32,679 nucleotides of DNA from Rheinheimera sp. 1928-s (GTDB lineage Bacteria > Pseudomonadota > Gammaproteobacteria > Enterobacterales > Alteromonadaceae). Within the stretch, counting starts at the first letter, position 1, and the number at the start of each line of letters is the position of its first letter. Position numbers and translations under genes: made by a program. Of this stretch, positions 4,389 through 24,995 are shown in pieces. The stretch covers positions 86,809-119,487 of the forward strand of contig NZ_JARIXP010000009.1 in NCBI RefSeq assembly GCF_029269265.1. The letters are read 5' to 3'. The notes under the pieces were generated by a model that was not told the DNA's origin, ran no database searches, and worked only from the letters and a program-made list of their open reading frames with translations.

Positions 4389-4473
4389 CCTAGCTTGTGG
4401 AATTGTAAAGTTTTATCAAGCAGTTCCGTAACTTATGATCATTCACTAAAGTCTGTACTGCAGATTGGAAGCT

Positions 4474-5496
4474 ATGCCGGTTAAAAAACCTACGATCAAA
4501 GACGTGGCCCGCCTGGCGGGTGTCTCCTTCAAAAGTGTGTCCAGGGTGGTGAATAACGAAGCCTGGGTCAGTGATGAAGTGAAAGCTAAAGTTCAGGCTG
4601 TGATTGCGCAGCTAAATTATCAGCCTAACCGTACGGCCAGGCTGATGCGCACTGCACCTTTTTCTTTGGCTTTTGTCTACGATAACCCGAATAGTCACTA
4701 TGTGATTGAAATGCAAAACGGTATTTTGTCGCAGTGCCGCAAAAAAGGTTTTGAGCTGGTGATCCATCCAACGGATTCGGCTTCGGATCAGGTGTGGCAT
4801 GAGTTAACCAGCATGATTGGCACCAATCAGATCGGCGGGGTGATCCTGACTCCACCTCTATCGGAAAGCACTGAGTTAGTGCAGCAACTTCTGGCTCAGC
4901 AGGCCAAAGTGGTCCGTATTGTCTCTGGTGCTGAACCCCCGGATGAGCTTTGTCCTACTATATACGTTGACGATGAACAGGCGGGGCAGGCCATTACTGA
5001 ACATTTGTTGGCTCAGGGTCATCGGCGCATTGCTTTTCTGGGATATCACAAAGATCACAAATCTTCTTTAGGTCGTTACCGTGGTTATTGTGCTGCACTT
5101 GAAAATGCGGGTATCGAGGTACAGGAAGAACTGGTGATATCAGGTAATTTCACCTTTGATTCCGGAGTGCAAATGACAGAAACATTATTACAGCAGGGCA
5201 GTGCAGCAACAGCACTTTTTGGTTGTAACGATGAAATTGCGGCAGGGGCTTTATATGCAGCCCGTAAGCGCGAACTGGCAGTGCCGCAGGATTTATCTAT
5301 CGTAGGTTTTGAAAACAGTCCTTTCTCCCGCCAGACCTGGCCAGGTTTAACCACAGTCCATCAGCCTAATGCGGAAATTGCCGCCAAAGCAGCATCTATG
5401 CTGATTGCGCTGATGCTGGAACCTGAACAACCTCCTGCACATTGCAGCATTAAATTGCAGCTTGTTTTACGCGACTCCGTATCTTTTATTGATTAA
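4474..5496 (+). CDS. nagR: LacI-family transcriptional repressor of GlcNAc utilisation, NagR type
   Basis: A 340-residue LacI/GalR regulator. The N-terminal helix-turn-helix plus hinge is clear (KPTIKDVARLAGVSFKSVSR, then VVNN and YQPNRTARLMR). The rest is a type-1 periplasmic-binding-protein-like sensor domain ending in TTVHQPNAEIAAKAASMLI and LVLRDS. The start is ATG 4474, which gives the standard family N-terminus; an in-frame TTG at 4465 would add only three residues. It precedes the whole nag cluster on the same strand, and a pair of palindromes centred on AACGTT lies 31 bp after its stop. In Alteromonadales and Xanthomonadales the LacI-family NagR occupies this position and is known to respond to an amino-sugar intermediate. 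The ligand here is inferred by homology. Confidence 0.9.
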   Translation: MPVKKPTIKDVARLAGVSFKSVSRVVNNEAWVSDEVKAKVQAVIAQLNYQPNRTARLMRTAPFSLAFVYDNPNSHYVIEMQNGILSQCRKKGFELVIHPTDSASDQVWHELTSMIGTNQIGGVILTPPLSESTELVQQLLAQQAKVVRIVSGAEPPDELCPTIYVDDEQAGQAITEHLLAQGHRRIAFLGYHKDHKSSLGRYRGYCAALENAGIEVQEELVISGNFTFDSGVQMTETLLQQGSAATALFGCNDEIAAGALYAARKRELAVPQDLSIVGFENSPFSRQTWPGLTTVHQPNAEIAAKAASMLIALMLEPEQPPAHCSIKLQLVLRDSVSFID

Positions 5497-5522
5497 CCTG
5501 TTCTAAATCAATCATTTAAAAT
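5493..5522 (+). promoter_or_regulatory. Candidate promoter overlapping the nagR stop, upstream of the nag operators
   Basis: TTAACC (5493-5498) and TAAAAT (5517-5522) are spaced by 18 bp. A transcript from here would begin at about 5529, inside the first NagR-like operator, which suits a repressor that blocks initiation. The -35 match is poor, so this is tentative. Confidence 0.3.
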
Positions 5523-5526
5523 AACG

Positions 5527-5562
5527 GTCAACGTTGTCATGTTTTTAATTGACAACGTTGAC
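5527..5562. promoter_or_regulatory. Double NagR-type operator (mirror-image pair)
   Basis: GTCAACGTTGTCA (5527-5539) and TGACAACGTTGAC (5550-5562) each approximate the palindrome TGACAACGTTGTCA that I recall for LacI-family NagR sites. Each has one perfect half-site and one half with one or two changes. The copies are exact reverse complements of each other, and their centres lie 24 bp apart. The pair therefore also forms a 13-bp perfect stem with a 10-nt loop if transcribed. It lies between nagR and the TonB-dependent receptor and probably controls the receptor and possibly the whole downstream cluster. Confidence 0.7.
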
Positions 5563-5674
5563 AGGTGGGTGCTAATTTAAATTCAGAGTGATGAATAAAT
5601 CACCGATCAGAAAGCTCCGGATAGAGGAACAGACGATCACAAAAATAATGATTGGCAACATAGAGAGCACAGGC

Positions 5675-8332
5675 ATGAACAGGTTGAATCAGCATCCGTT
5701 TGGGAAAAAAACACTACTCGCTTCTATTTTGGCGACTTTATTTGTACCAGCCGTCACGCATGCGCAGGACAAGGCGGCTGAAGAAGAAAACGTGGAAGTG
5801 ATCCAGGTCAGTTTCCGCGGCAGTCTGGCAGCAGCTGCTGACATCAAACGTCAGGACACTAAAATTACTGACGCTATCACCACTGAGGATATAGGTAAGT
5901 TTCCAAGCGAAAACATTGCTGAGGCTATTCAGCGTATTCCGGGTGTACAAATTTCTAACGTTAATGGTCGCGGCTCAACAATCAGCGTGCGTGGTTTAGG
6001 CTCTCAATATGCCCGCACCACGTTAAATGGCCAGACCATGGCCAGTGCAGATTTTACCAGTGGTTTTCGGTTTGACATTATTCAAACTGAACTGGCATCC
6101 ACCATTGAAGTTATTAAATCCCCAACAGCCAATATGGACGCTGGCGGATTATCCGGTACCATCAACATAGATACCGCTTCGCCTTTATCCTTTAGTGAAC
6201 GCAAAATATTACTGTCAGGTAAAGGCCAATACTCAGAGTTTTCTCCAACCGACGACATTACCCCTAAAGCCAATGCTACTTATATTGATCAGTTCGCTAA
6301 TGGCACTGTAGGTGTATTGCTGAATATTGGTTATCAGGAACTGGATGACAGGGTAGATAACTTCTGGATGGACCGCTGGTTTGTCGACTCAGCTACAGAT
6401 GATGTCACACCACGTCGGCCACGTTACCGTCGTATTGACCGCGAAACAGAGCGGGAGTTATTTAACGGCACAGTGCAGTGGAAACCAACCAACGCTTTTG
6501 AAGCTAAGTTGACCACAGTGTATGCAGGGGACGACACTAAGCAGGATTTAAATCAGCAGGTGTTTCTGTTTAATGAAAACCAGATCACCCGTTTAGGCGA
6601 TGCTGAAAATGGCGTTTATAACAGCATTCAGATTGATAACTTCACCAATGAAAATAACCGTCAGATGGAAGAGAAAGATGCAACCTCTGAAGCTTATACT
6701 TTAGAGCTGGATTACGACTGGCAAGACTGGACCTTCAGCAGCGTAATGCACTACACCGCAGGTGAAGCTGTGCACAACGAAGAAGCAGCTATTCTGGCGA
6801 CAGTGATTTCACGAGCCACGTTGGATATTACTGATCCATCCAATATTAGTTTTAATATTGCCGATAATCTGGCTGATCCGGCGTTGTATCCGGCCGTGAT
6901 GCCACGTAACGAATACCCGAATGGTGCCAGTCGTCTGACGGAATCAGAGGAAAGTGCAATACAGTTCGACGCACAACGTGGGCTGGAATGGGGTTGGTTC
7001 ACCAGTGTTGCGGCTGGCGTGAAATACCGTAATGAAACTATGGAAAGGGAAGTCTACCGGACCGACAGGGCTGCTATAGGTGATGCCGATCCAGCTGATT
7101 TACCTTCAATGGCTGAATATGGTTATATAGTTTCGGATTTCCTTGATAACAAAATGGATATTCAGCACAGCTGGATAGCGCCTAATATCCAGGCTTACCG
7201 TGATGCCTTAACTGCAGAAGGCGTGACAGTACCAACTTTATTTGCCGCTCAGTCCAGCTATTCTGTTGATCAAACTATTACATCAGCTTACCTGATGACT
7301 GACTTTGAAACCGAAGTAGGCGGCTTGCCACTGCGCGGCAATATAGGCGGTCGTTATGAGCGCACCGAGCGTGATATCAACACCTACATTACAGGGGACA
7401 CTCACCCGGATAACGAAGAAATTAAGCTGGCGATAGGTGAAACCACGCAAGGCTTTAATTACGACAACTTCCTGCCAAGTGCTAACCTGGTGTTGGAATT
7501 AAACGACGATATGCAAGTGCGTCTGGCTGCAGCCAAAGTACTGGTGCGTCCTATGTTAACGTCCAACACTCAACTGGCCCCATCTGAAACTTCAGCGTCC
7601 AACTCTTTTGGTACCCGCACTTATACAGTGAATCTCGGCCAACCTGAACTGGCGGCTTTGACAGCTAATCAACTGGATTTGGGCTGGGAGTGGTATTACA
7701 GCGAAGGCGATTCCTTTACCGTCAACCTGTTCCAAAAAGATATAAAAAACGGCACTGTCAGTGAACTGATTTGTCCGGATTCATACGACGGCACAGCGCT
7801 GAGCACTTCAGGTTCTGATTGTGTCGATAGTGCAGGCAATATCTATGACATCACTGCCATTTATAACGATAGCTCAAAACTGACGGTCAAAGGCTATGAA
7901 ATAGGCTGGAACCAGGGTCTGGATAACTGGTTACCAGTGGCTGGTTTTGGTTTAAGTTCAAACTACACCCGTATACTGGTGGATGAAAGTGAAGGTTTTA
8001 CGCTGACCAACTCGTCAGAACAAACCTGGAACATCACAGGCTATTGGGAAAATGACGATTACAGTGCCCGTGTTTCACTGAACCACCGCAGTCCTTATAT
8101 ACAAGACAGCACAGATGCGTTTTTCGCTCGTGAAGGCCGCACTGTTGAAGGTCGTAATCAGATCGATGTACTGTTAGGCTGGAATATTAGCGAGCAGTGG
8201 TCAGTGCGTTTTGGTGCACTGAACCTCAATGGCAAAGACGAAGAAGCTTATCGTGATGAGCTGACCCGTGCCTGGCAAACAACCAGTGTGATTGGTCGTA
8301 GTTATTATCTGGGCATGAACTTCAGCCTGTAA
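5675..8332 (+). CDS. TonB-dependent outer-membrane receptor of the GlcNAc cluster
   Basis: A large outer-membrane beta-barrel receptor, 885 residues from ATG 5675. That start gives a normal Sec signal peptide (MNRLNQHPFGKK, then a Leu/Ala/Val core ending THAQ) and has AGAGAG upstream. The frame is open back to a GTG at 5588 and ATG 5591, which would bury the signal sequence behind ~29 extra residues. After a TonB-box-like VEVIQVS comes the plug domain (ITTEDIGKFPSENIAEAIQR, GVQISNVNGRGSTISVRGLG, EVIKSPTANMDAGGLSGTIN), then the barrel to the C-terminal YYLGMNFSL. It resembles the TonB receptors of Xanthomonas/Caulobacter type associated with carbohydrate uptake. Its place directly behind the NagR operators suggests transport of GlcNAc-containing oligosaccharides. 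Confidence 0.9.
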   Translation: MNRLNQHPFGKKTLLASILATLFVPAVTHAQDKAAEEENVEVIQVSFRGSLAAAADIKRQDTKITDAITTEDIGKFPSENIAEAIQRIPGVQISNVNGRGSTISVRGLGSQYARTTLNGQTMASADFTSGFRFDIIQTELASTIEVIKSPTANMDAGGLSGTINIDTASPLSFSERKILLSGKGQYSEFSPTDDITPKANATYIDQFANGTVGVLLNIGYQELDDRVDNFWMDRWFVDSATDDVTPRRPRYRRIDRETERELFNGTVQWKPTNAFEAKLTTVYAGDDTKQDLNQQVFLFNENQITRLGDAENGVYNSIQIDNFTNENNRQMEEKDATSEAYTLELDYDWQDWTFSSVMHYTAGEAVHNEEAAILATVISRATLDITDPSNISFNIADNLADPALYPAVMPRNEYPNGASRLTESEESAIQFDAQRGLEWGWFTSVAAGVKYRNETMEREVYRTDRAAIGDADPADLPSMAEYGYIVSDFLDNKMDIQHSWIAPNIQAYRDALTAEGVTVPTLFAAQSSYSVDQTITSAYLMTDFETEVGGLPLRGNIGGRYERTERDINTYITGDTHPDNEEIKLAIGETTQGFNYDNFLPSANLVLELNDDMQVRLAAAKVLVRPMLTSNTQLAPSETSASNSFGTRTYTVNLGQPELAALTANQLDLGWEWYYSEGDSFTVNLFQKDIKNGTVSELICPDSYDGTALSTSGSDCVDSAGNIYDITAIYNDSSKLTVKGYEIGWNQGLDNWLPVAGFGLSSNYTRILVDESEGFTLTNSSEQTWNITGYWENDDYSARVSLNHRSPYIQDSTDAFFAREGRTVEGRNQIDVLLGWNISEQWSVRFGALNLNGKDEEAYRDELTRAWQTTSVIGRSYYLGMNFSL

Positions 8333-8339
8333 TAACTAC

Positions 8340-8366
8340 AGGAGCCAGCTCAGTGGGCTGGCTCCT
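8340..8366 (+). terminator. Intercistronic hairpin between TonB receptor and GH89 genes
   Basis: AGGAGCCAGC (8340-8349) and GCTGGCTCCT (8357-8366) form a 10-bp GC-rich stem with a 7-nt loop, starting 8 nt after the receptor stop. No T-run follows, so full termination is unlikely. It more probably protects the receptor mRNA 3' end or partly attenuates transcription into the downstream catabolic genes. Confidence 0.6.
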
Positions 8367-8398
8367 TACTAAAAACCAAAAACAAGAAGGAAGATCCG

Positions 8399-10669
8399 AT
8401 GTTTTCGTTTCGTCTTAGTGCGGCAGCCTGTGGTGTTATAACCACCTTGATGCTGACCGGCTGTAGTCCGGCCGGAGCGCCAACACAAACTGCGCCAGTT
8501 CAAACCGCAGTCGCACAACAAAGCAGCTCAGAGGTTAAGCCTGTTCGGGATTTATTTGAGCGTGTCGCTGGTAAGACCGTACCTAATGTCCATTTTACTT
8601 TGTTGAAGGATAACCAGACCGACTGGTATCAGGTAGAGGCCCGTGATGGTCAGCTTTATATTAGTGCCAATGCGCTGACGGCTTTAAGTTACGGAACCTA
8701 CGAGTATCTGCGTCAAATTGGTGTGATGTCGGTCAGTTGGGAAGGCAACAGAATAGCCTTACCAGAGCACTTTGCTGATTATCCGCTTGAACGTGTCAGT
8801 TCTCTATTTAAGCAACGGGCTTATCTGAACGTTTGTGCTTATGGTTACACCACACCATGGTGGGGTTGGACCCGATGGGAGCAAGAACTGGACTGGATGG
8901 CACTGCATGGGGTGAATAATCCTGTGGCTATGGAAGGTCAGGAATTTATCTGGCAACAACTCTGGCGTGAGTTTGGGGTCAATGACTCTGAACTGGCCAG
9001 CTATTTCTCAGGCCCGGCTTTTACGCCGTGGCAACGTATGGGCAATATTGAAGGCCACGAAGGCCCTTTGCCTGATGAATATATTGAAAAAAAACGTCAG
9101 CTGCAAAAACAGATTATGGCGCGTATGGCCGACTACGGCATGAAACCTGTAGTACCGGCGTTTTCAGGTTATGTGCCTAAGCAATTCAAAACTTTGTTTC
9201 CGGACGCCAAAATTTCCGCTATGCCAAAATGGTCTGGTTTTGCCAATGAAACCTATTGGCTGGACCCGGCCGATCCGTTATTTGCCAAAGTCGCGAAACG
9301 TTTTATCGAATTGTATAACGTCGAATATGGTGAGCAGAAGTATTACCTGCTGGATGCCTTTAATGAAATGTTGCCACCAGTGTCGGCCGATCAGCGCCAT
9401 CAGGATTTAGCCGGTTACGGCGAAGCTTTGTATCAGTCTCTGGCGCAATCCGTACCTGATGCCACCTGGGTGATGCAGGGCTGGATGTTTGGTTCGGATC
9501 AGCATTTTTGGGATCTGAAATCTATCGAAGCCTTTTTAAGTAAAGTGCCTGACAACAAGCTGATGATCCACGACATAGGCAACGACAGGTTTGATGTTTG
9601 GCAAAAAGCCAAAGGTTTTTACAACAAAGACTGGGTCTTTGGTTTTATTCACAATTATGGCGGCAGCAACCCTGTGTATGCCGACTTTGATTACTACAAA
9701 GAAAAAGTCGATGCCGCCTTGCATCATGCTGATAAAGGCAATTTGACGGGTTACGGTGTGTTCCCTGAAGGTATTCACAGCACCTCAGTGGCTTACGAAT
9801 ATATGTTTGACGTGGCCTGGCAAGGTCAGGCGACAGCAACCAGTGATTGGTTAGAGCATTACCTGAAAGCCCGTTATGGCGCTGCAAGTCCGGCGTTGTT
9901 ATCGGCCTGGAATAAATTATACAAAGCGGTGTTCAGTACTAAATACTGGGAACCACGCTGGTGGGAAGGTTCTGCCGGAGCTTACCTGTTATTTAAGCGG
10001 CCTTCACTGGATTATCTGCGCTATACCGGTGCTCCCGGCAATCTGGTTTTACTGGATCAGGCACTGCGTGAACTGGTGGCTTTGCCAGAAAATGAGCGCA
10101 GCACACTGCTGAAGTATGACCTGATTGATCTGACCCGTCATGCAGTTACTCAGCATATTGATATGTTGCTGCAGCACAGCATGCTGGCCTATCAGCAAGG
10201 CAATATTGAACAAGGCGATAGCTGGCGGCAACAGGCCAAAGCGCTGATCCTGGGGGTTGACGCACTGATTGGGGGCCAGCAGGAAACGTTGCATAGCTGG
10301 GTGAAAGAGGCGCGTGATTATGCCGACACACCAGAATTAGCGGCTTTGTATGAACGCAATGCCAGACGTCAGGTGACCAGTTGGGGTGGTTTGAAGCTGA
10401 AAGATTATGCGTCCAAAGCCTGGCAGGGCATGTATGCCGATTTTTATCTGCCGCGCTGGGAGCTGATGTTTGATGCGCAGCGCAAAGCCGCCCAAGAGGG
10501 GAAAACCCTTGATAAAGCCGCAGTAGAGCAGCAACTGGTCGACTGGGAAGCTGCCTGGCTGGACAAAGCTCTGCCTGCACCAGCTCAACAGCCAGCAGAT
10601 GCTTTTACAGCTATTGCTGCTTTGCAGGCTCTGGTCACGGCCAGCAAAGCGCCCCCTTCAAATCTGTAA
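8399..10669 (+). CDS. Alpha-N-acetylglucosaminidase lipoprotein, GH89 (NAGLU family)
   Basis: A 756-residue homologue of human NAGLU and bacterial GH89 enzymes, which release terminal alpha-linked GlcNAc. The N-terminus is a lipoprotein signal with lipobox LTGC (Cys22; Ser at +2 suggests outer-membrane sorting). A small N-terminal domain (about 45-125) is followed by the catalytic barrel, recognised by RAYLNVCAYGYTTPWWGWTR, by LLDAFNEM with the likely acid/base Glu323, and by GVFPEGIHSTSVAYEYMFDV with the likely nucleophile Glu457. These match the positions of Glu316 and Glu446 in human NAGLU. A helical C-terminal domain completes the usual length. It lies between the TonB receptor and nagX in the nag cluster. 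Likely substrates are GlcNAc-alpha-capped glycans such as gastric-type mucin or heparan-sulfate ends; the natural one is unknown. Confidence 0.93.
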   Translation: MFSFRLSAAACGVITTLMLTGCSPAGAPTQTAPVQTAVAQQSSSEVKPVRDLFERVAGKTVPNVHFTLLKDNQTDWYQVEARDGQLYISANALTALSYGTYEYLRQIGVMSVSWEGNRIALPEHFADYPLERVSSLFKQRAYLNVCAYGYTTPWWGWTRWEQELDWMALHGVNNPVAMEGQEFIWQQLWREFGVNDSELASYFSGPAFTPWQRMGNIEGHEGPLPDEYIEKKRQLQKQIMARMADYGMKPVVPAFSGYVPKQFKTLFPDAKISAMPKWSGFANETYWLDPADPLFAKVAKRFIELYNVEYGEQKYYLLDAFNEMLPPVSADQRHQDLAGYGEALYQSLAQSVPDATWVMQGWMFGSDQHFWDLKSIEAFLSKVPDNKLMIHDIGNDRFDVWQKAKGFYNKDWVFGFIHNYGGSNPVYADFDYYKEKVDAALHHADKGNLTGYGVFPEGIHSTSVAYEYMFDVAWQGQATATSDWLEHYLKARYGAASPALLSAWNKLYKAVFSTKYWEPRWWEGSAGAYLLFKRPSLDYLRYTGAPGNLVLLDQALRELVALPENERSTLLKYDLIDLTRHAVTQHIDMLLQHSMLAYQQGNIEQGDSWRQQAKALILGVDALIGGQQETLHSWVKEARDYADTPELAALYERNARRQVTSWGGLKLKDYASKAWQGMYADFYLPRWELMFDAQRKAAQEGKTLDKAAVEQQLVDWEAAWLDKALPAPAQQPADAFTAIAALQALVTASKAPPSNL

Positions 10670-10720
10670 CTTTTAAGCAGAGCAGTGCGGACTTTTATGT
10701 CAGCACAGCAGGAATTCACT

Positions 10721-11797
10721 ATGCAAGCACAACGTTTACTGGCGTTAGATTTGTTCCGGGGCCTGACCATTATTTTGATGATTATGGTCAACAGCCCCAA
10801 CACCTATGGCGAATTTTCCCATGCGTATTGGGATGGTGTGACTTTCGCTGATTTTATTTTTCCGTTTTTCCTGATCATTGTCGGTGTGGCTATTGCCATA
10901 GGGATGAGGCCCATTGAACGCAGCGCTGAAGAATTATCAGCACTGCGATTAAAGGTACTGCGCCGCAGTCTGATTATGTTTGGCTTAGGTATTGTCGTCA
11001 ATCTGATGTATCTGAAGTTTGCTGATATCCGCATTTTGGGTGTGCTGCAGCGTATCGCTGTGGTCTATCTCGTGTGCTCCTTTTTGGCGATGCAGTTCAG
11101 CAGCAAACGACTGATGCACATACTGGGTTTTATTCTGATCAGCTACTGGCTGTTAATTTTACTGGTGCCAGCTCCTGGTTTAGTGGCCGGTCAGTTGGAA
11201 CGTGATGCCAACCTGATCAACTGGTTCGACAGCGCTTTTTTACCCGGCATGTTGTGGCGTGGAAGCTGGGATCCTGAAGGCATTCTGAGTACTTATCCTG
11301 CTATTGCCAGTGGTTTGTTTGGTGTGCTGATGGGGCGGCTGGTGCTGGCTTACAAGCAACAACTGCCGCAACTGGTGATGTCTTTGTTTGTATTAGGTTT
11401 TTGTAGCTTTTTGCTGGGGTGCCTCTGGAGTTTGTTTTTTCCTTTGATTAAGCAGATCTGGAGCAGCTCTTTTGTGCTGGTCACCAGCGGTATGGCGAGT
11501 ATGGTGTTGGCCTTGCTGATTTGGTTCTCTGATGTCAAAGGGTACCAGCAATTGACCCGTGTTCCGCTGATTTTTGGTGCCAACGCTATAGTGGCTTATG
11601 TGCTGCATGTGGCCATGGAAAAACTGCTGGAAGTGCCGGTGGCTGGACAGTCGGTGCATGGTGCTTATCAGCAGTGGGTTGCAGCTTTAGGCTGGAACCA
11701 GTTTTTCAGTGTTGGCGTGTGGATTGCGGCTTTTCTGGTGCTTTGTTATCTGCCGGTCTGGTGGCTGTATCAGCGCAAAATCTTCGTAAAAATTTAA
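10721..11797 (+). CDS. nagX: NagX, HGSNAT-like integral membrane protein (DUF5009 family)
   Basis: A polytopic inner-membrane protein, 358 residues with roughly ten hydrophobic helices. The opening RLLALDLFRGLTIILMIMVN is the hallmark of this family, which is related to heparan-alpha-glucosaminide N-acetyltransferase (HGSNAT). The next segment, SHAYWDGVTFADFIFPFF, aligns without gaps to the human HGSNAT region that carries the acetyl-accepting active-site His; here that is His34. I chose ATG 10721 because AGGA lies 7 nt upstream and family members start just before RLL; ATG 10697 and GTG 10685 are in-frame alternatives. In Xanthomonas and Alteromonadales nag clusters nagX is assigned a putative transport-related role in GlcNAc use. 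The retained His also allows transmembrane acetylation of glucosamine ends, which is inference. Confidence 0.88.
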   Translation: MQAQRLLALDLFRGLTIILMIMVNSPNTYGEFSHAYWDGVTFADFIFPFFLIIVGVAIAIGMRPIERSAEELSALRLKVLRRSLIMFGLGIVVNLMYLKFADIRILGVLQRIAVVYLVCSFLAMQFSSKRLMHILGFILISYWLLILLVPAPGLVAGQLERDANLINWFDSAFLPGMLWRGSWDPEGILSTYPAIASGLFGVLMGRLVLAYKQQLPQLVMSLFVLGFCSFLLGCLWSLFFPLIKQIWSSSFVLVTSGMASMVLALLIWFSDVKGYQQLTRVPLIFGANAIVAYVLHVAMEKLLEVPVAGQSVHGAYQQWVAALGWNQFFSVGVWIAAFLVLCYLPVWWLYQRKIFVKI

Positions 11798-11817
11798 CAG
11801 ATCCAGGTTCTGCAGAT

Positions 11818-11836
11818 CATCTGGTTTTGCCAGATG
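11818..11836 (+). other. Small hairpin between nagX and nagK
   Basis: CATCTGG (11818-11824) and CCAGATG (11830-11836) are perfect 7-bp arms around TTTTG. It lies in the 84-bp gap before nagK and has no terminator T-run. It may tune mRNA stability or be incidental. Confidence 0.3.
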
Positions 11837-11893
11837 GTATGCCCTTGGTTTACCCAAAAACTGACCTGAAAGGGGATCCGGGTGACGAACACT

Positions 11894-12805
11894 ATGCAGA
11901 AAACTATTCAGCAAACAATGCAACACGAACAACTTTTTATTGGAGTGGATGGCGGCGGCACCAAGTGCAAAGCCAGACTGGAAACCGGCAAGGGTGCTTT
12001 ATTGGCTGAGGCTGTAACAGGACCGGCCAATCCGGCGACAGATTTTGCTGTGGCTGTGGATTCCATACTGCAGGCCTGTCAGCAGGTGGTACAGCAGGCA
12101 GGCTATACCGACACTGCTTTGGCTAATTGTCATGTAGTGATGGGTTTAGCAGGTGTTAATGTGCCTCGTGTGCAAAGCCAGATGCAACATTGGTCTCATC
12201 CTTTTGCCAGTTTAACTGTAACTACAGATTTGCATATCGCCTGTCTCGGTGCTCATGCAGGCCGGGACGGTGCCATTTTAATTACCGGCACAGGCACAGC
12301 GGCTTTTTCTACTGTGGATAACGAGCAGTTTTTATTCAGTGCTCAGGGTTTTCCACTTGGAGACAGAAGCAGCGGCGCCTGGTTTGGCTGGCAGGCGGTA
12401 TGCGCCACTTTGGATAGTTTGGATGGTTTAACGGCTGAGACTGAGCTGACCAAAACTATTTGCCGGACTTTAGGTGTTGGTAGCAATACAGACCTGATCA
12501 GCTGCTGTATAGGCTACAAAGCAACGGACTATGCCCAGTTGGCGCCGCTGGTCTTAAGGTATCAGCAGCTTGCTGATCCGCATGCGCTGGATATTACCAG
12601 CCGTGGTCTGGATTACATTCAGGCGTTGTTACATCGGCTATTAAAAACCGGAGCGTCCCGTATCGCCATGATAGGTGGTTTAGCGCCATTTTTAGCCGAC
12701 TTGTTACCTACGGACTTACAACAACAGCTCAGCCCTGTGCTGGGTCCCCCTGAGGTTGGCGCAGTGGTGCTGGCCCGACAGCTTTTTGCGGAGAGAGCAG
12801 CATGA
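11894..12805 (+). CDS. nagK: N-acetylglucosamine kinase, BadF/BadG-type ASKHA ATPase
   Basis: A sugar kinase of the BadF/BadG/BcrA/BcrD ATPase family (about 303 residues) that phosphorylates imported GlcNAc to GlcNAc-6-phosphate. Visible ASKHA motifs are the phosphate-1 loop FIGVDGGGTKCKA near the N-terminus, the phosphate-2 region LITGTGTAAF, GDRSSGAWFGWQA, and the adenosine loop MIGGLAPFL. The start is ambiguous. ATG 11894 has GGGTG 9 nt upstream, while GTG 11882 has AGGGG at a good 6-nt spacing and would add four residues; the catalytic core is unaffected. The stop overlaps the next start in an ATGA, so kinase and deaminase are translationally coupled. A phosphotransferase permease is not needed because NagP plus NagK does the same job. 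Confidence 0.92.
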   Translation: MQKTIQQTMQHEQLFIGVDGGGTKCKARLETGKGALLAEAVTGPANPATDFAVAVDSILQACQQVVQQAGYTDTALANCHVVMGLAGVNVPRVQSQMQHWSHPFASLTVTTDLHIACLGAHAGRDGAILITGTGTAAFSTVDNEQFLFSAQGFPLGDRSSGAWFGWQAVCATLDSLDGLTAETELTKTICRTLGVGSNTDLISCCIGYKATDYAQLAPLVLRYQQLADPHALDITSRGLDYIQALLHRLLKTGASRIAMIGGLAPFLADLLPTDLQQQLSPVLGPPEVGAVVLARQLFAERAA

Positions 12806-13800
12806 CGTTAATGCGACAAGAAGCCAGTTCAAGCTGGCAAAAAATTGAACAGCAAAATCAGAGTAACGAGGCTTTATATCAGGAGTTGGCGAAAAAGATC
12901 AGAGATTTTGATCCGGCTTTTGTTTATATGGTTGGCCGTGGCACTTCAGACCACGCTGGTGTGTTTGCCCGTTATCTGATTGAAGTGGAATTGGGAGTTG
13001 TGGTGGCTGCCGCCGCGCCTTCGGTTGCCAGTTTATTCTCCAGGCAACTGAAGCTGAATAAGGCACTGGTTCTGCTGATTTCTCAGTCGGGCCGCAGTGA
13101 AGATTTGCTGGCTCAAGGCAGGGCGGCCAAACAAAGTGGCGCTTTAGTTGTGGCTTTGGTCAATGACATCAGCTCTCCGCTGGCCGCTTTAGCGGACTAT
13201 GCCATACCTCTGCTGGCCGGGCCTGAAAAAGCAGTAGCAGCTACCAAAAGTTATCTTTGTACACTTTCTGCTTTGCTGCAACTGGTCGCACATTGGAAGC
13301 AGGACGAAGAGCTGCTGGATGCGTTAGAGAACTTGCCTGCTGCGTTGCAACAAGTGCTAGATCAGCCGGCCCAGCTGCATGCCGATCACATCAAAACGCT
13401 TCGTCATTGTGTGGTGTTAGGGCGGGCTTTTGGTTACGCGATATCCAGAGAGATAGCTCTAAAAATCAAAGAAGTCTGTGGTATTCAGGCGGAAGCGTTT
13501 AGCAGCGCAGAGTTTTTACATGGTCCTATTTCGTTACTGAATCAGCCTTTGACGCTGTTGAATGTGCAACTGAATGATGAAAGCAGTGAAGCCCATCAGG
13601 CGCAAATCGCCGAAGTAAAAAAACGTGGTGGTGTGGTTCTGACTTTGGCTTTAAACGCAGCTCAGCAGACTATTCACCCACGATTACAGCCTTTATTGCT
13701 GATGCAGCGCTTTTATCTTGATATAGAAGCTGTGGCTTTGGCGCTTGGCCATAATCCGGATGCGCCTGTTGGCCTGAATAAAGTGACCAGCACCTTATGA
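12802..13800 (+). CDS. nagB-II: Glucosamine-6-phosphate deaminase, SIS-domain type NagB-II
   Basis: A 332-residue double-SIS-domain protein that replaces the classical NagB. It is predicted to convert glucosamine-6-phosphate to fructose-6-phosphate and ammonia. The first SIS domain shows VGRGTSDHAG and LISQSGRSEDLL, followed by GPEKAVAATKSYL. The second has VLGRAFGYAISREIALKIKE and AEAFSSAEFLHGPISLL. There is no glutamine-amidotransferase domain, which separates it from GlmS. ATGA overlaps join it to nagK upstream and nagA downstream. The assignment to NagB-II rather than another SIS aldose-ketose isomerase rests on this context and on the pattern known from Shewanella-type nag clusters. Confidence 0.92.
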   Translation: MTLMRQEASSSWQKIEQQNQSNEALYQELAKKIRDFDPAFVYMVGRGTSDHAGVFARYLIEVELGVVVAAAAPSVASLFSRQLKLNKALVLLISQSGRSEDLLAQGRAAKQSGALVVALVNDISSPLAALADYAIPLLAGPEKAVAATKSYLCTLSALLQLVAHWKQDEELLDALENLPAALQQVLDQPAQLHADHIKTLRHCVVLGRAFGYAISREIALKIKEVCGIQAEAFSSAEFLHGPISLLNQPLTLLNVQLNDESSEAHQAQIAEVKKRGGVVLTLALNAAQQTIHPRLQPLLLMQRFYLDIEAVALALGHNPDAPVGLNKVTSTL

Positions 13801-14945
13801 ACAGCATTTATGTTTCCCATTGTTTTGATGGCAAAGAGCTGCTGCAGGATGTTCGGCTGGACTGGCTGCAGGGCCGTATAGTTGCGCTGCAATCCGGTGT
13901 AAAACCGCAGCTTCACCATCAGCCTCAACTGCAAGGCTTGCTTTGTCCTGGCTTTATTGATATTCAGGTCAATGGTGGCGGTGGGGTGTTATTTAACCAG
14001 TTACCTGATGTCACAGCGCTCAAAACCATTAGCAAAGCTCATCTTGGCTTTGGCACTACGGGTATGTTGCCGACAGTGATCACCGACAGTCTGGAGGTGA
14101 TGCAACGTGCTGCAGATGCTGTGGCTGAACTCTTGCCAGAGCCGCAGCATACAGTGTTGGGTATTCATTTTGAAGGCCCGCATTTGTCGGTTGCTCGCCG
14201 TGGTATTCATCCTGCAGAGCAGATCAGGCCTTTGTCGGATAAAGAAATGCAGCTGATTTGCCGCAAAGACATAGGCAAAGTGATGGTGACCCTAGCACCT
14301 GAAACTGTGCCTGTGGAGCAAATCCGAGAGCTTGTGGCTCAAGGCGTCATCGTCAGTCTGGGACATTCTGCAGCTACCGCAGAACAAGCATTGGCCGCTA
14401 TTGACGCCGGAGCCCGCTGTTTTACCCATTTATTTAATGCGATGTCGCCTTTGACCAGTCGTGAACCCGGCATGGTAGGGGCGGCTTTGGCCAGTTCGCA
14501 GGTGTATTGTGGTTTGATTCTGGATCATTTGCATGTTCATCCTGTGTCGGCGCGTATTGCAGCGCAGTGCAAAGGCGAAGACAAACTGATTCTGGTGACA
14601 GATGCAATGGCTCATACTGGCAGTGACTTACAGCTATTACCCTATTTGCAGACTGCGATTCGTCGGGAAGGTCTGAAACTGACTTTACCTGATGGCACAT
14701 TAGCGGGTTCAGCTTTGGACATGAATACAGCCTTGCGGCATTTTTGTCTGGATTTGGCATTACCCTTAACCTCAGGTTTAAAAGCCTTGAGCACCAATCC
14801 GGCGCGTTTGGCTGGATTGGATCATATGGGGCAGCTGCAAAGCGGAGCTGCTGCCAATATGCTGTTATTAGACGACAACCTGAATGTGCAGCGCTGCTGG
14901 TTACAAGGCGTGGAACAACAGAATAATAAAAAGGAAACTATATGA
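13797..14945 (+). CDS. nagA: N-acetylglucosamine-6-phosphate deacetylase
   Basis: A 382-residue amidohydrolase of the NagA family that removes acetate from GlcNAc-6-phosphate. The metal and catalytic set is complete: GIHFEGPHLS gives Glu126, LGHSAAT gives His190, FTHLFNAMSPL gives His211, and LVTDAMAHTGS gives the catalytic Asp269. These match Glu131, His195, His216 and Asp273 of E. coli NagA in order and spacing. LCPGFIDIQVNGGGG near residue 50 and LAGSALDMNTALR near 300 are further family signatures. Its start overlaps the nagB-II stop and its stop overlaps the nagP start, both as ATGA, so all four enzymes and the transporter should be made from one coupled message. Confidence 0.96.
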   Translation: MNSIYVSHCFDGKELLQDVRLDWLQGRIVALQSGVKPQLHHQPQLQGLLCPGFIDIQVNGGGGVLFNQLPDVTALKTISKAHLGFGTTGMLPTVITDSLEVMQRAADAVAELLPEPQHTVLGIHFEGPHLSVARRGIHPAEQIRPLSDKEMQLICRKDIGKVMVTLAPETVPVEQIRELVAQGVIVSLGHSAATAEQALAAIDAGARCFTHLFNAMSPLTSREPGMVGAALASSQVYCGLILDHLHVHPVSARIAAQCKGEDKLILVTDAMAHTGSDLQLLPYLQTAIRREGLKLTLPDGTLAGSALDMNTALRHFCLDLALPLTSGLKALSTNPARLAGLDHMGQLQSGAAANMLLLDDNLNVQRCWLQGVEQQNNKKETI

Positions 14946-16261
14946 GCAACGTTACTCAGAACCCATCAGGCAGTTCATCAAGCCTGCAGCCGATCATCAT
15001 TATCGGCGTGCTGTTTTTTATGTTTGGTTTTATTACCTGGCTTAATGGCGCTTTGATCCCGTTTTTACAGCTGGTATGCCAGTTAGAGGAATTTCAGGCA
15101 CTTTTAATCGCCTTTAGTTTTTATATTGCTTATGTGGTGATGGCTTTACCTATGGCGAGAGTGCTGGCCTGGTCGGGCTATAAAAACGCCATGTCTATCG
15201 GCTTAGGGCTGATTGCTTTGGGCTGCGCTTTGTTTATTCCTGCCGCTTACAGCCAACAGTTTATGGTGTTTTTACTGGCGCAGTTTGTGGTCGGATCGGG
15301 TTTAACTTTGTTGCAAACCGCTTCAAACCCTTATTTGGTAAGAGTAGGGCCAGAACACTCAGCCGCTGCCCGTATTTCCTTAATGGGCATTTTAAATAAA
15401 AGTGCAGGTGTATTGGCGCCTTTGGTGTTCACCTGGCTGGTATTACAGGATTTAGGCCATATCACGGCAGACAGTCTGGCTCTGCTGGGCGAGGCGGAAC
15501 GTCAGCAGCAATTAACTTTGTTAGCGTCGCAGCTGATTACACCTTATACCGGAATTGCTGTGGCTATTTTGCTACTGGCTGTCGCTTTGCGTTTTTCTGC
15601 CTTGCCGGATTTACCGGCAGAAGCTGCACCTGTAACAATAGATGGTAGTGAAACTTCTGTCTGGCAACACCGTCATCTGGTGCTTGGTGTTATTACCTTG
15701 TTTTGTTATGTCGGAGTAGAGGTCATAGCAGGGGATACCATAGGTTTATTGGGTTCTGCACTCAATGTTCAGGGCGCTACCACTTTAGCCTCCTATACCA
15801 TGGCCTTTATGGTGCTGGGTTACAGTCTGGGTTTATTGCTGGTGCCTAAAGTTTTATCGCAGCGCCAGGCTTTGGCTACATCTGCTGGTTTAGGTTTGGT
15901 GTTGTCGATAAGTATTTTAGTTTCAGACCCAAGTAACACTGCGATTTCTGCGCTGTTATGGGGGTGGGCTGGATTACCTTTGTTACCCGATCCTATCAGT
16001 CTGGTGGCCTTATTAGGTCTGGCTAATGCGTTAGTTTGGCCTGCAGTCTGGCCTTTGGCGTTGGCTGGTTTAGGTTCATTAACACCCAAAGCTTCAGCGC
16101 TGCTGATTATGGGCATAGCAGGTGGTGCTTTGCTGCCGCTACTCTATGGCGCTTTATCTCAACACTTTGGTGCTATAGCCGGTTATATGGTGTTGTTACC
16201 TTGTTATGCCATGATTCTGTATTACGCAGTCTGGGGTTGTAAGGTGAAGTCCGACATATAA
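14942..16261 (+). CDS. nagP: N-acetylglucosamine MFS transporter NagP (FucP-like)
   Basis: A 439-residue major-facilitator permease with about 12 transmembrane segments, of the fucose/glucose/GlcNAc (FucP) subfamily. The N-terminal helix has FFMFGFITWLNGALIPFLQL, and the fourth to fifth helices carry LLQTASNPYLVRVGPE and AARISLMGILNKSAG, both typical of this group. It should import free GlcNAc across the inner membrane by proton symport, to be phosphorylated by NagK. It is the last gene of the cluster, overlaps nagA by 4 nt, and is followed 13 bp later by a hairpin terminator. Confidence 0.93.
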   Translation: MSNVTQNPSGSSSSLQPIIIIGVLFFMFGFITWLNGALIPFLQLVCQLEEFQALLIAFSFYIAYVVMALPMARVLAWSGYKNAMSIGLGLIALGCALFIPAAYSQQFMVFLLAQFVVGSGLTLLQTASNPYLVRVGPEHSAAARISLMGILNKSAGVLAPLVFTWLVLQDLGHITADSLALLGEAERQQQLTLLASQLITPYTGIAVAILLLAVALRFSALPDLPAEAAPVTIDGSETSVWQHRHLVLGVITLFCYVGVEVIAGDTIGLLGSALNVQGATTLASYTMAFMVLGYSLGLLLVPKVLSQRQALATSAGLGLVLSISILVSDPSNTAISALLWGWAGLPLLPDPISLVALLGLANALVWPAVWPLALAGLGSLTPKASALLIMGIAGGALLPLLYGALSQHFGAIAGYMVLLPCYAMILYYAVWGCKVKSDI

Positions 16262-19063: not shown

Positions 19064-21037
19064 TTAAGGATTCGCTACCTCTTGTAATATGTTTTTCATC
19101 CGTGGCAATGCAGACCAGTCATCCAGTTGAATGTCATTGGTTCTGGCGTTAAAAGCGCGAGCTTTGCGTGACATAGGTTGAATATGCGCGACAAGTTCCG
19201 GCCATTTTTCGCTCAGTTCTTTGTGGGCAAACTGACGTAATTCTTTGATGCTTTCTGCGGGTTCTTCAGCGTGCAGCTGGTCGGCTTCTGCACTTTGCAG
19301 TGTTCTGTCGTAGCTTGGCACACGTCTGGGGGTGATCAGGATCAGCACAGATTTTTTATAGGACTGTTGAGTGTTTTTTGAAAACAGGTTTTTAATACCC
19401 GGAATATCTTTAATTAATGGCACACCTGAGCTGCCTGAAATCACTTCACTTTCCACCAGACCGGACAAAATCAGGGTTTCATTCACTTTGACACTGGTGG
19501 CGGCAGACACAGTATTTCGTGAGGTTTGAACGGATTGCGAGAAGGTCGATGAACCGGTGATAGGTTCAAAAAATGTGCGGGCGGCTTTTACGTTCAACAG
19601 CATATGTTCATCGTCAATAAAAGTAGGAGTGACAGACAAGCTGACACCGACATTGATTTGATTAAATGAACTTGAACCACCATCGCTGCCTGCCAGTCCC
19701 ACCGCGATATTTGATCCTGAGAAAAACTGCGCAGACTGTCGATCCAGCACCAATAAACTGGGGCGAGCGACCACTTCAGTGGTTTGCTCTGTCACATTGG
19801 CAATATTCAGCGAATAGGCAATGGCGCCGCCAGCCGAAGTACCCAAACCTATATCTCTGGTTAAGGTGGTGTTGGTGACGCTGGGTTCACCTGAGGTAGT
19901 GGTGGTTATTTTATTGGTTGTGTTCTGAATGCTGACAGCAAGGTTATCCAGCAAATTTAAACCTGTGCTGGAGGTATTCAATTGGTTGTTGCGCAAAATG
20001 ACGACATCAATGACAGCCATCTGTGGCAGTGGCCGTCCAATACAAGGTGAGGGCAGGCTGGGCAATACTTTGGTTTCATCCACGGCCACACCTTGGGTTG
20101 CTGAGTCATCAGAGGCAGAGCTATCATCGCTTCCTTCTGCAACCGGGGTCTGGCGTTGTACGCAGTCTGACCAGGCATACATCAATGGGCCTGATGTGGC
20201 AGTGGCATCTTTAACGCTCCCGGCGACAGCAGCCAAAGGCAAGACAGGACTGGTTTTATTCTGTATCTCTGCTGCATCATTGAATTGATACGACTGTTGC
20301 CACTGGGCAAGGCGTTGACTGAGCTTTTGTTTTTCTTGTGTTGAAAAACTCTGCTGTGTGCTCTGGTAGAGATCCAAGGCTTGGGCCGTCAATCCAGCCG
20401 AACTGTAAATAATGGGCGAGATTCGGCTTGTGGTTGCATCCATAGGCGCACTGTTTCGCAGCTTCTGTATCGCCCATAACGCCAGCTCTGTTTCACCCAA
20501 ATAATAAGAAGCACTGGCCAGCAACTGTAAAGTTTCCAGATCCGCAGTGTCCAGCTTTAAGGCATAGGCCGCAGCCAGCTGAGCCTGTTTATATTGTTTA
20601 TTTTCAAGATAAAGATGCGCCAATTGCAGCACAGCGTTTTGAGAATCGTGCTGTTGCTCAAGTGCAATCAGATAACCGGTTTCAGCCAGTTCAAACAAAT
20701 CACGCTCACCATGACGGGTTCTCATTTGATAAGCCAAAGCGTTGGCCGTGTGTAAAGCGGCGTTATGCATATCCAGAGAGATGGCTGTATTAAAAGCCTG
20801 ATTTGCTTTTGTCGCATCACCTTGGGTCAAAGCAGCTATGCCTTGCGTCAGATTTTCTTGTACGGGGCCCTTAGGCTTGTGTAAGTAACGTTCACTGGCA
20901 ACACCAGGAGAATTGTGGTGGCCTGTTTGAAAGGAGCCAGAACTGGTGTTGGCTGTGCAGGAGACTAAACTACAAACCGCCAGCGAAACTGCGAAGGGAT
21001 AAAGCTGTTTTGCCGGAAATGGCACCCCTTTAAACAT
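19064..21037 (-). CDS. Lipoprotein with TPR repeats fused to a secretin (GspD/PilQ-type) domain
   Basis: A 657-residue protein from ATG 21037 (GGAG 8 nt upstream) with a lipoprotein signal ending in lipobox LVSC (Cys27). Residues about 65-230 contain helical TPR-like repeats (AALTQGDATKANQAFNTAIS, NKQYKQAQLAAAYALKLDT). After a Ser/Asp-rich linker comes a secretin core (about 320-570), identified by VVARPSLLVLDRQSAQFFSG and by the C-terminal signature GVPLIKDIPGIKNLFSK followed by SVLILITPRRV. Secretins form the outer-membrane pores of type II/III secretion, type IV pili and phage export. Here there is no ATPase, pilin or inner-membrane partner nearby. It is divergent from a two-component system across a palindrome-rich gap, which suggests regulation by that system. 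Its partner machinery is unknown. Confidence 0.85.
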   Translation of the reverse strand: MFKGVPFPAKQLYPFAVSLAVCSLVSCTANTSSGSFQTGHHNSPGVASERYLHKPKGPVQENLTQGIAALTQGDATKANQAFNTAISLDMHNAALHTANALAYQMRTRHGERDLFELAETGYLIALEQQHDSQNAVLQLAHLYLENKQYKQAQLAAAYALKLDTADLETLQLLASASYYLGETELALWAIQKLRNSAPMDATTSRISPIIYSSAGLTAQALDLYQSTQQSFSTQEKQKLSQRLAQWQQSYQFNDAAEIQNKTSPVLPLAAVAGSVKDATATSGPLMYAWSDCVQRQTPVAEGSDDSSASDDSATQGVAVDETKVLPSLPSPCIGRPLPQMAVIDVVILRNNQLNTSSTGLNLLDNLAVSIQNTTNKITTTTSGEPSVTNTTLTRDIGLGTSAGGAIAYSLNIANVTEQTTEVVARPSLLVLDRQSAQFFSGSNIAVGLAGSDGGSSSFNQINVGVSLSVTPTFIDDEHMLLNVKAARTFFEPITGSSTFSQSVQTSRNTVSAATSVKVNETLILSGLVESEVISGSSGVPLIKDIPGIKNLFSKNTQQSYKKSVLILITPRRVPSYDRTLQSAEADQLHAEEPAESIKELRQFAHKELSEKWPELVAHIQPMSRKARAFNARTNDIQLDDWSALPRMKNILQEVANP

Positions 21038-21140
21038 TGGTACAGCTCCTGTTGCCTGATCAAAACGCTGCAACTTTGCCAGCGCAGGTTTTTTACCCTG
21101 TGAAGTGCACTCATCATAGGCGCACTAAGCTCAGAGGGTC

Positions 21141-24707: not shown

Positions 24708-24995
24708 ATGCATGATTCTGCTGATTTACTTTTAAAACAATGGGGCGCTTTAATTCAGAGTTGCCGTGCTGAGCGTGAAAGCCAAAGCCAATTTGCCAAA
24801 CGTCTGGGCGTGGGGCGCTCAACTGTATCAGCATTGGAAAACGGCAGCGCTCAGGTGGCTGTGGGCACTTATCTGCAGGCCATGCTGGTGCTGGGTTTGG
24901 CAGGCTCTTTTGCCGACTGGCTGAGCCAGCAAGAGCAGGAACAGCAACGACAGCGTTTTCGTGTTTCAGCGCAGAGGCTGGATAATGATTTCTGA
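24708..24995 (+). CDS. hipB: HipB-like antitoxin, XRE-family DNA-binding protein
   Basis: A 95-residue protein with a Cro/CI-type helix-turn-helix at about residues 12-70 (SQFAKRLGVGRSTVSALENG) and a Gln/Arg-rich tail. In HipBA modules this partner neutralises the HipA kinase and represses the operon by binding palindromes. A 15-bp inverted repeat sits immediately before its start. Its last codons overlap the hipA start by 11 nt, so translation is coupled. The C-terminal tail (QEQEQQRQRFRVSAQRL) is longer and more charged than a minimal XRE domain needs and could be the HipA contact. Confidence 0.88.
   Translation: MHDSADLLLKQWGALIQSCRAERESQSQFAKRLGVGRSTVSALENGSAQVAVGTYLQAMLVLGLAGSFADWLSQQEQEQQRQRFRVSAQRLDNDF

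What the first reader, a model, noticed from the sequence alone, without database searches (positions are those of the whole stretch)
8399..11797. Bacterial pairing of NAGLU (GH89) and HGSNAT (NagX) homologues, mirroring two steps of lysosomal heparan-sulfate breakdown
Seen: a GH89 lipoprotein with both catalytic Glu (323, 457) sits 51 bp before a DUF5009/NagX membrane protein that keeps the segment SHAYWDGVTFADFIFPFF, including His34 at the HGSNAT acceptor-His position. Known: in human lysosomes HGSNAT acetylates terminal glucosamine across the membrane and NAGLU then removes the resulting alpha-GlcNAc. Inference: NagX here may acetylate unsubstituted glucosamine ends in the periplasm with cytoplasmic acetyl-CoA, turning them into GH89 substrates, rather than only aiding transport.
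Basis: partly seen in the sequence, partly recalled or inferred. Interest (0 to 1): 0.75.

Follow-up and report, generated by a model that had tools for sequence, protein, structure and literature searches.

The report
Conserved bacterial GH89–NagX sugar-trimming pair
Next to an enzyme that clips alpha-linked N-acetylglucosamine, this bacterium encodes a membrane protein related to the human lysosomal enzyme that adds the acetyl group; the two genes stay together in many proteobacteria, which suggests (but does not prove) that the two lysosomal steps also run in the bacterial envelope.

Summary
Window 8399-10669 encodes a GH89 lipoprotein with both catalytic Glu (323, 457). After 51 bp, 10721-11797 encodes a 358-aa NagX with the HGSNAT catalytic residues (N24, H34, D44), CoA-site Arg and glucosamine-binding Arg/Glu; its AlphaFold model matches human HGSNAT (TM 0.80-0.85). 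That NagX is a transmembrane glucosamine N-acetyltransferase like HGSNAT was already published (Price 2022) and is in NCBIfam. What I found no report of is the pairing. Among 80 GH89 loci (best 80 of 530 hits), NagX is present in 54 of 56 from Pseudomonadota (the other two contigs end at GH89) and 2 of 24 from Bacteroidota. Of 48 paired loci with at least 8.4 kb on both sides, 18 show none of the nag genes probed. At least two NagX lineages partner GH89. Heparan sulfate is not supported (no Hepar_II_III_C match). GH115 in 12 loci points instead to glycans with alpha-glucuronic acid, such as plant GIPC head groups, which carry GlcN or GlcNAc caps.

The parts
4465..5496 (+). LacI-family regulator (NagR-like by position)
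   Evidence: Pfam LacI and Peripla_BP_3; TTG start from the mechanical ORF list, not verified
5526..5539 (+). palindromic operator-like site GGTCAACGTTGTCA
   Evidence: 2 mismatches to TGACAACGTTGTCA; two sites in the window, 0.13 expected by chance, 1 of 100 shuffles has two
5550..5563 (+). palindromic operator-like site TGACAACGTTGACA upstream of the TBDR
   Evidence: similar sites upstream of nagK in the second nag operon of the same genome and before both nagX and the TBDR in G106, where they are divergent
5588..8332 (+). TonB-dependent receptor
   Evidence: TIGR01782 E 5.1e-183, Pfam
8399..10669 (+). GH89 alpha-N-acetylglucosaminidase, lipoprotein (Cys22), catalytic Glu323 and Glu457
10721..11797 (+). 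NagX, HGSNAT-like transmembrane N-acetyltransferase (N24, H34, D44; R13, R82; R104, E186; H296)
11882..12805 (+). NagK-type N-acetylglucosamine kinase (BcrAD_BadFG family)
   Evidence: NF046058 E 1.2e-93, below its cut-off (313.8 of 370 bits)
12802..13800 (+). NagB-II glucosamine-6-phosphate deaminase (SIS)
   Evidence: NF046059 over cut-off (503.3, cut-off 430 bits)
13797..14945 (+). [quoted passage not shown]
   Evidence: TIGR00221 over cut-off
14942..16261 (+). NagP-like MFS transporter
   Evidence: NF046060 E 7e-148, below its cut-off (493 of 625 bits); TIGR01272 over cut-off

Best explanation
The eight genes form an alpha-GlcNAc utilisation operon. A TonB-dependent receptor brings in an amino-sugar-capped oligosaccharide; [quoted passage not shown] GH89 then releases GlcNAc, which NagP, NagK, NagA and NagB turn into fructose-6-phosphate. 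Shown here by sequence and model: the family identities, the catalytic and CoA-site residues, the HGSNAT fold and the conserved GH89-NagX linkage. Inferred: the acetyltransferase activity (from HGSNAT and published mutant fitness) and the acceptor being the alpha-GlcN end that GH89 then cleaves.
For: (1) HGSNAT homology: phmmer E 1.6e-27 with N286, H297, D307 aligned to N24, H34, D44; mutating these HGSNAT residues drastically reduced activity, H297 most (PMC11199644 section 8). AF2 model pLDDT 93.4; Foldseek ranks 1-15 are HGSNAT (E 1.0e-12 or better, TMq 0.80-0.85), ranks 16-17 the acyltransferase GWT1; the first carrier fold is at E 0.053. (2) Residues binding GlcN in HGSNAT, R372 and E499, are R104 and E186 here; conserved in 59/59 linked NagX and in 55/56 and 56/56 unlinked. 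(3) Linkage: NagX in 56 of 80 GH89 loci: 54 of 56 Pseudomonadota, 48 of them adjoining GH89 on the same strand (one, L085, in two pieces) and 6 on the divergent half, the two misses on contigs that end at GH89; 2 of 24 Bacteroidota, one adjoining, one 2.8 kb away. Background: NagX in 34 of 349 genomes drawn from the phylum. (4) In the order, GH89 is in 5 of 295 genomes; these five hold the NagX at 56-100% identity to P0002, while the best full-length NagX of any other genome is 40% (three partial matches of about 90 residues reach 43-44%). (5) 18 of 48 paired loci with at least 8.4 kb on both sides show none of the nag genes I probed for, so NagX there does not look like a nag-operon passenger. 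(6) GH89-linked NagX fall in more than one lineage (4 label changes; AU test against one clade p 0.018). (7) Operator-like palindromes of one kind stand before the TBDR-GH89 unit, before nagX where the two are divergent, and before the second nag operon. (8) Price 2022: in five bacteria NagX matters for growth on glucosamine but not on GlcNAc, with a possible exception in Caulobacter.
Against: No activity was measured. Price 2022 concerns free glucosamine, and Caulobacter vibrioides DSM 9893 has a single NagX match, the GH89-adjacent one, so a GH89-linked NagX probably serves free GlcN as well. GH89 makes GlcNAc, which needs no acetylation, so adjacency could also fit a NagX that only salvages free GlcN. 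The own genome has a second NagX in a nagK-B-A-P-X operon beside a GH20 gene, where alpha-GlcN logic does not apply. A genome with a distant GH89 (G851) has no NagX match, and 22 of 24 Bacteroidota GH89 loci show no NagX in the fetched flanks; the one such genome looked at, L083, has NagX elsewhere. The feature that separates linked from unlinked NagX (H614- or E615-equivalent, 58/59 against 4/56) reflects few clade-level events; independent pairs were too few to test it (3 pairs, median p 1).
Confidence: 0.6

Rival explanations
1. NagX acetylates only free periplasmic glucosamine so that the GlcNAc transporter and NagK/NagA can use it (the Price 2022 proposal); it sits beside GH89 because both belong to the GlcNAc regulon.
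For: Mutant fitness in five bacteria on free glucosamine; NagX also sits in a second nag operon beside a GH20 gene in this genome; shared operator-like sites; the two GlcN-binding residues compared (R104, E186) are the same in linked and unlinked NagX.
Against: 18 of 48 well-flanked paired loci show GH89-NagX without the probed nag genes; GH89 yields GlcNAc, not GlcN; the order's GH89 genomes keep a separate NagX clade, three of five alongside a second divergent copy.
Confidence: 0.28
2. NagX is an inner-membrane carrier for the GlcNAc that GH89 releases, as proposed for the distant homologue TfMurT (cited in Price 2022; that paper was not read).
For: In TBDR-GH89-NagX loci without nagP or PTS matches in reach, NagX is the only inner-membrane protein of the three (one of them, L101, has an unassigned MFS gene further off); Price notes that NagX might matter for GlcNAc in Caulobacter.
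Against: HGSNAT fold with no carrier match under E 0.03; catalytic His/Asp and CoA-site Arg in all 115 sequences compared; NagP is present in the same operon here; Price found GlcNAc growth otherwise not dependent on NagX and argued against a transporter.
Confidence: 0.07
3. The linkage is an inheritance effect: one ancestral GH89-nagX cassette spread by descent and transfer, with no mechanistic coupling.
For: Linked NagX form two large clades, so the number of independent events is small.
Against: A single clade is disfavoured (p 0.018, groups named after seeing the tree); gene order, strand and surrounding genes differ between lineages while the pair persists.
Confidence: 0.05

Closest known systems
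Human HGSNAT (TmAT superfamily, PF07786)
   Same: Catalytic N-H-D residues, CoA-site Arg, GlcN-binding Arg and Glu, predicted fold
   Different: 358 aa, no room for the luminal domain and TM1; 26-27% identity in the HGSNAT rows of the Foldseek search; bacterial inner membrane in place of the lysosome; acceptor untested
NagX of Shewanella-type GlcNAc operons (NF046061; Price 2022; PMC2996990)
   Same: Same family (E 7.6e-54) and same neighbours nagK, nagB, nagA, nagP
   Different: Below the NF046061 cut-off (183 of 480 bits); separate clade from the unlinked NagX sampled; N24-H34 loop 4 residues shorter than in the four unlinked NagX; H296 where unlinked NagX mostly have Ser (42 of 56); partner is GH89
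GH89 / NAGLU (human NAGLU, CpGH89)
   Same: All three NAGLU domains and both catalytic Glu
   Different: Bacterial lipoprotein inside an operon with TBDR and GlcNAc catabolism; aglycone preference unknown
Lysosomal HGSNAT then NAGLU steps of heparan-sulfate breakdown
   Same: The two enzyme families and the presumed order acetylate, then hydrolyse
   Different: No Hepar_II_III_C match in the genome; substrate probably not heparan sulfate

Membership tests
HGSNAT/NagX transmembrane acetyltransferases (PF07786) | Profile match over the curated cut-off | tested here: met
   30.5 bits against 22; hmmscan of the protein gave no family, a disagreement I did not resolve
HGSNAT/NagX transmembrane acetyltransferases (PF07786) | Catalytic Asn, His, Asp (HGSNAT 286, 297, 307) | tested here: met
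   N24, H34, D44
HGSNAT/NagX transmembrane acetyltransferases (PF07786) | Acetyl-CoA pore residues (R275, R345) and DxxR motif | tested here: met
   D10, R13, R82 present here and in 115 of 115 NagX compared
HGSNAT/NagX transmembrane acetyltransferases (PF07786) | TmAT (HGSNAT) membrane fold | tested here: met
   AF2 model, Foldseek to HGSNAT; a predicted model, TM helices not counted one by one
HGSNAT/NagX transmembrane acetyltransferases (PF07786) | Acetyl transfer from acetyl-CoA to glucosamine | not testable with these tools
   needs an assay
NagX_SO_3504 equivalog (NF046061) | Score over the equivalog cut-off | tested here: not met
   183 of 480 bits: related, not filed as this equivalog
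DUF5009 | Pfam match | tested here: inconclusive
   no Pfam family up to E 10 by hmmscan, but that search also missed PF07786; DUF5009 was not searched separately
GH89 alpha-N-acetylglucosaminidase | NAGLU domains over cut-off | tested here: met
   PF12971, PF05089, PF12972
GH89 alpha-N-acetylglucosaminidase | Two catalytic Glu | tested here: met
   E323 in FNEM, E457 in PEGI, aligned with E of the human and Clostridium enzymes; that these are the catalytic Glu is recalled
GH89 alpha-N-acetylglucosaminidase | Release of terminal alpha-GlcNAc | not testable with these tools
   needs an assay
Heparan-sulfate degradation pathway | Heparinase-type lyase in the genome | tested here: not met
   no Hepar_II_III_C (PF07940) match in the own genome; other lyase families were not tested
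Heparan-sulfate degradation pathway | Sulfamidase/sulfatases | tested here: inconclusive
   two Sulfatase-family matches, substrate class not determined

The most novel reading that the evidence does not exclude
GH89-NagX is a widespread bacterial re-acetylate-then-cleave module, equivalent to the lysosomal HGSNAT-NAGLU relay. It lets proteobacteria consume glycans whose caps are a mixture of GlcN and GlcNAc, above all the plant sphingolipid (GIPC) head group GlcN(Ac)-alpha1,4-GlcA-alpha1,2-inositol, with GH115 removing the alpha-glucuronic acid. At least two NagX lineages joined GH89 and kept a polar or acidic residue at the extracytoplasmic mouth (HGSNAT H614 or E615) that most other NagX lack.
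Probability: 0.2. Interest if true: 0.82.

Novelty: new variant of a known kind. Interest (0 to 1): 0.6.

Why it matters
If true, two steps known from lysosomal heparan-sulfate breakdown (deficient in Sanfilippo C and B) have a conserved, genetically linked bacterial counterpart that can be tested in laboratory bacteria. It would explain how GlcNAc-specific hydrolases deal with unacetylated sugars, give NagX a role on glycan ends beyond free glucosamine, and offer small bacterial homologues for HGSNAT mechanism work. It also suggests a possible route for bacteria to use plant sphingolipid head groups.

Tried and rejected
His34 conservation as a discriminator: useless, present in all sequences of both groups. 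Heparan sulfate as substrate: no Hepar_II_III_C match. Carrier function: no carrier match under E 0.03. NagX as a mere nag-operon passenger: weakened by 18 of 48 well-flanked paired loci without the probed nag genes. H614/E615 as independent evidence: only 3 independent pairs, median p 1. GH89 tree: one very long branch (L172), so its root means nothing and I draw nothing from it. A one-base reference made the alignment meaningless. Grouping of the 80 loci by taxon was done by hand from record titles. The nag probes were built from sequences in hand; full Pfam annotation of neighbours was run only for parts of five loci: L120 and L101, L069, L077, L072. Unlinked NagX loci mostly carry about 1.5 kb of flank; their genomes lack a GH89 match, except second copies in G000, G052 and G254 and copies in the ten genomes. 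Dropped rows: three partial NagX before the 115 (one from L001, two pieces from L085) and L142 before the tree.
Full report
What is there. The window lies in an unnamed 4.64-Mb genome, contig C24; the closest named loci by GH89 identity are Rheinheimera. Genes 4465-16261 (+) read LacI, TonB-dependent receptor, GH89, NagX, NagK, NagB-II, NagA, NagP. GH89 has all three NAGLU domains, both Glu and a lipobox; NagX starts at ATG 10721, 51 bp after the GH89 stop. The finding's observation is confirmed.

What NagX is. phmmer finds only human HGSNAT chains in the PDB, up to E 10 (best E 1.6e-27). N24, H34, D44 match HGSNAT N286, H297, D307; R13 and R82 match R275 and R345, which contact the CoA diphosphate; R104 and E186 match R372 and E499, which hold the 6-OH and 3-OH of glucosamine (residue roles: PMC11199644 section 8; alignment). 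The AF2 model has mean pLDDT 93.4 and matches HGSNAT chains at TMq 0.80-0.85; the only other matches with E under 0.001 are two chains of GWT1, another acyltransferase. A Caulobacter GH89-linked NagX gives the same picture (pLDDT 94.0; TMq 0.77-0.80). This argues for an acyltransferase and against a carrier.

What was known. Price et al. 2022 (PMC9007349; [quoted passage not shown] NCBIfam carries the name (NF046061). A 2025 TmAT paper (PMC12423673; outline, passages and part 1 of section 6) takes DUF5009 proteins as likely HGSNAT orthologues. I saw no paper on GH89-NagX pairing in searches of this open-licence library. Searches returned nothing; of the others I saw the listings only, 30 of 417 papers, 26 of 26, 25 of 86, 15 of 49 and 12 of 16. 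Most subscription papers are not in the library.

How conserved the pairing is. In the window's order GH89 is in 5 of 295 genomes and NagX in 53 of 295. The five GH89 genomes hold the NagX at 56-100% identity to P0002; elsewhere the best full-length match is 40%, with three partial matches of 43-44%. Three of the five also have a second NagX at 35-36%. NagX is in 56 of 80. By group: 54 of 56 Pseudomonadota, of which 48 adjoin GH89 (one of them, L085, in two pieces) and 6 (Alteromonadaceae) lie on the divergent half of the locus; the two misses (L061, L064) are on contigs that end at GH89. Bacteroidota: 2 of 24. Only 34 of 349 genomes drawn from the phylum have any NagX. In the same draw 4 have GH89: three with NagX, and G851, whose GH89 is distant (E 3.7e-76), without. 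Of 48 paired loci with at least 8.4 kb on both sides, 18 contain none of the probed nag genes (NagA, NagB, NagK, NagP, PTS); they are from Asticcacaulis, Caulobacter, Phenylobacterium, Sphingomonas, Azospirillaceae, an unclassified alphaproteobacterium and two Bacteroidota. Probes were built from sequences in hand, so distant nag genes could be missed; L101, for instance, has an MFS gene of unknown substrate.

Evolution. In a tree of 79 NagX (27 linked, 52 not) linkage needs four changes against 22.6 for shuffled labels: one clade of Rheinheimera and Alteromonadaceae, one of Xanthomonas relatives, Caulobacteraceae, Sphingomonas, Azospirillaceae and Croceivirga (with one unlinked member), and one lone Bacteroidetes row. 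Holding the first two together is rejected at p 0.018, with the caution that the groups were named after seeing the tree. Catalytic and CoA residues do not separate linked from unlinked NagX, apart from N24 (58 of 59 against 43 of 56). One further place does: at HGSNAT H614/E615, which line the luminal entrance (PMC11357348, passages, its numbering +28), linked NagX have His (19) or Glu (39) in 58 of 59, unlinked in 4 of 56. This reflects few events and could not be tested by independent pairs.

Regulation. Two palindromes near TGACAACGTTGTCA stand before the TBDR (0.13 expected in the window). The second nag operon of the genome (nagK-B-A-P-X, L037, with a GH20 gene nearby on the other strand) has one before nagK, and in G106, where nagX and TBDR-GH89 are divergent, both halves have one. 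So the GH89 unit and nagX look co-regulated with GlcNAc catabolism. That the Shewanella GlcNAc repressor NagR is a LacI-family protein is from PMC2996990 (passages); that these sites bind the LacI protein here is inference.

Substrate. GH115, known for xylan alpha-1,2-glucuronidases (title and start of the abstract of PMC13059095), lies in 12 of the 80 GH89 loci, all 12 among the 56 with NagX: Sphingomonas 7, Asticcacaulis 2, Caulobacter 2, Croceivirga 1; Pfam was run on two of them, L120 and L077. The window's genome has two GH115 matches, neither in the window. The core of plant GIPCs is GlcNAc-alpha1,4-GlcA-alpha1,2-inositol (PMC6151786, figure legend); infected tomato gave two head-group ions that differ by an acetyl group (PMC11496612, passages), and plants attach GlcN or GlcNAc to this core (PMC12201980, passages). 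Such a mixture is what an acetylate-then-cleave pair would serve. This is a hypothesis from co-location; the 9 Rheinheimera-group loci show no GH115 in their flanks, and xylan could explain GH115 independently. Bacterial GH89 enzymes can cleave GlcNAc-alpha1,4-GlcA (Bt3590; PMC8225759, passages), the same cap as in heparosan and GIPC.

Verdict. A real GH89-NagX module, conserved among close relatives of this GH89. NagX is very probably a transmembrane glucosamine N-acetyltransferase (about 0.9). That it primes alpha-GlcN ends for GH89 is the best single explanation of the linkage (about 0.6) but is untested; action on free glucosamine, supported by published genetics and by the single GH89-adjacent NagX of C. 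vibrioides (that this is the gene Price used is inference), is the main rival.

Noticed in passing
L037 (G000:C1:302500-322400), nagK-nagB-nagA-nagP-nagX at 5469-10984: The same genome has a second complete nag operon with its own divergent NagX (about 30-35% identity to the window's) and a GH20 gene nearby on the other strand (C1:305329-306579): apparently parallel beta-GlcNAc and alpha-GlcNAc operons.
   Followed up: partly
G000:C1:234253-234888 and G000:C19:251185-251814 (L173, L174): Two further HGSNAT_cat proteins in the genome, scoring higher than the window's NagX against PF07786 (67.5 and 44.6 bits); function not looked into.
   Followed up: no
GH89 loci L063, L065, L073, L077, L094, L097, L103, L112, L115, L118, L120, L124: GH115-type alpha-glucuronidase genes lie within about 10 kb of GH89-NagX in 12 of 80 loci; relatives of a GH2 protein (Pfam run on L072 only) accompany 11 Xanthomonas and several Sphingomonas and Asticcacaulis loci.
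   Followed up: partly
L085:12369-13625 and 13009-13602: In Xanthomonas arboricola pv. guizotiae CFBP 7408 the NagX next to GH89 matches in two pieces in different frames, so it looks interrupted; two other X. arboricola loci (L081, L084) have it as one open frame.
   Followed up: no
window 10721-11797; Pfam hmmscan reports no family for this NagX even at E 10, while a genome search with PF07786 scores the same gene over its cut-off; annotation by hmmscan alone would miss it.
   Followed up: partly
window 24961-26193 (+) and 19064-21073 (-): A HipA-like protein (HipA_C, Couple_hipA) and a secretin lie downstream of the operon.
   Followed up: no
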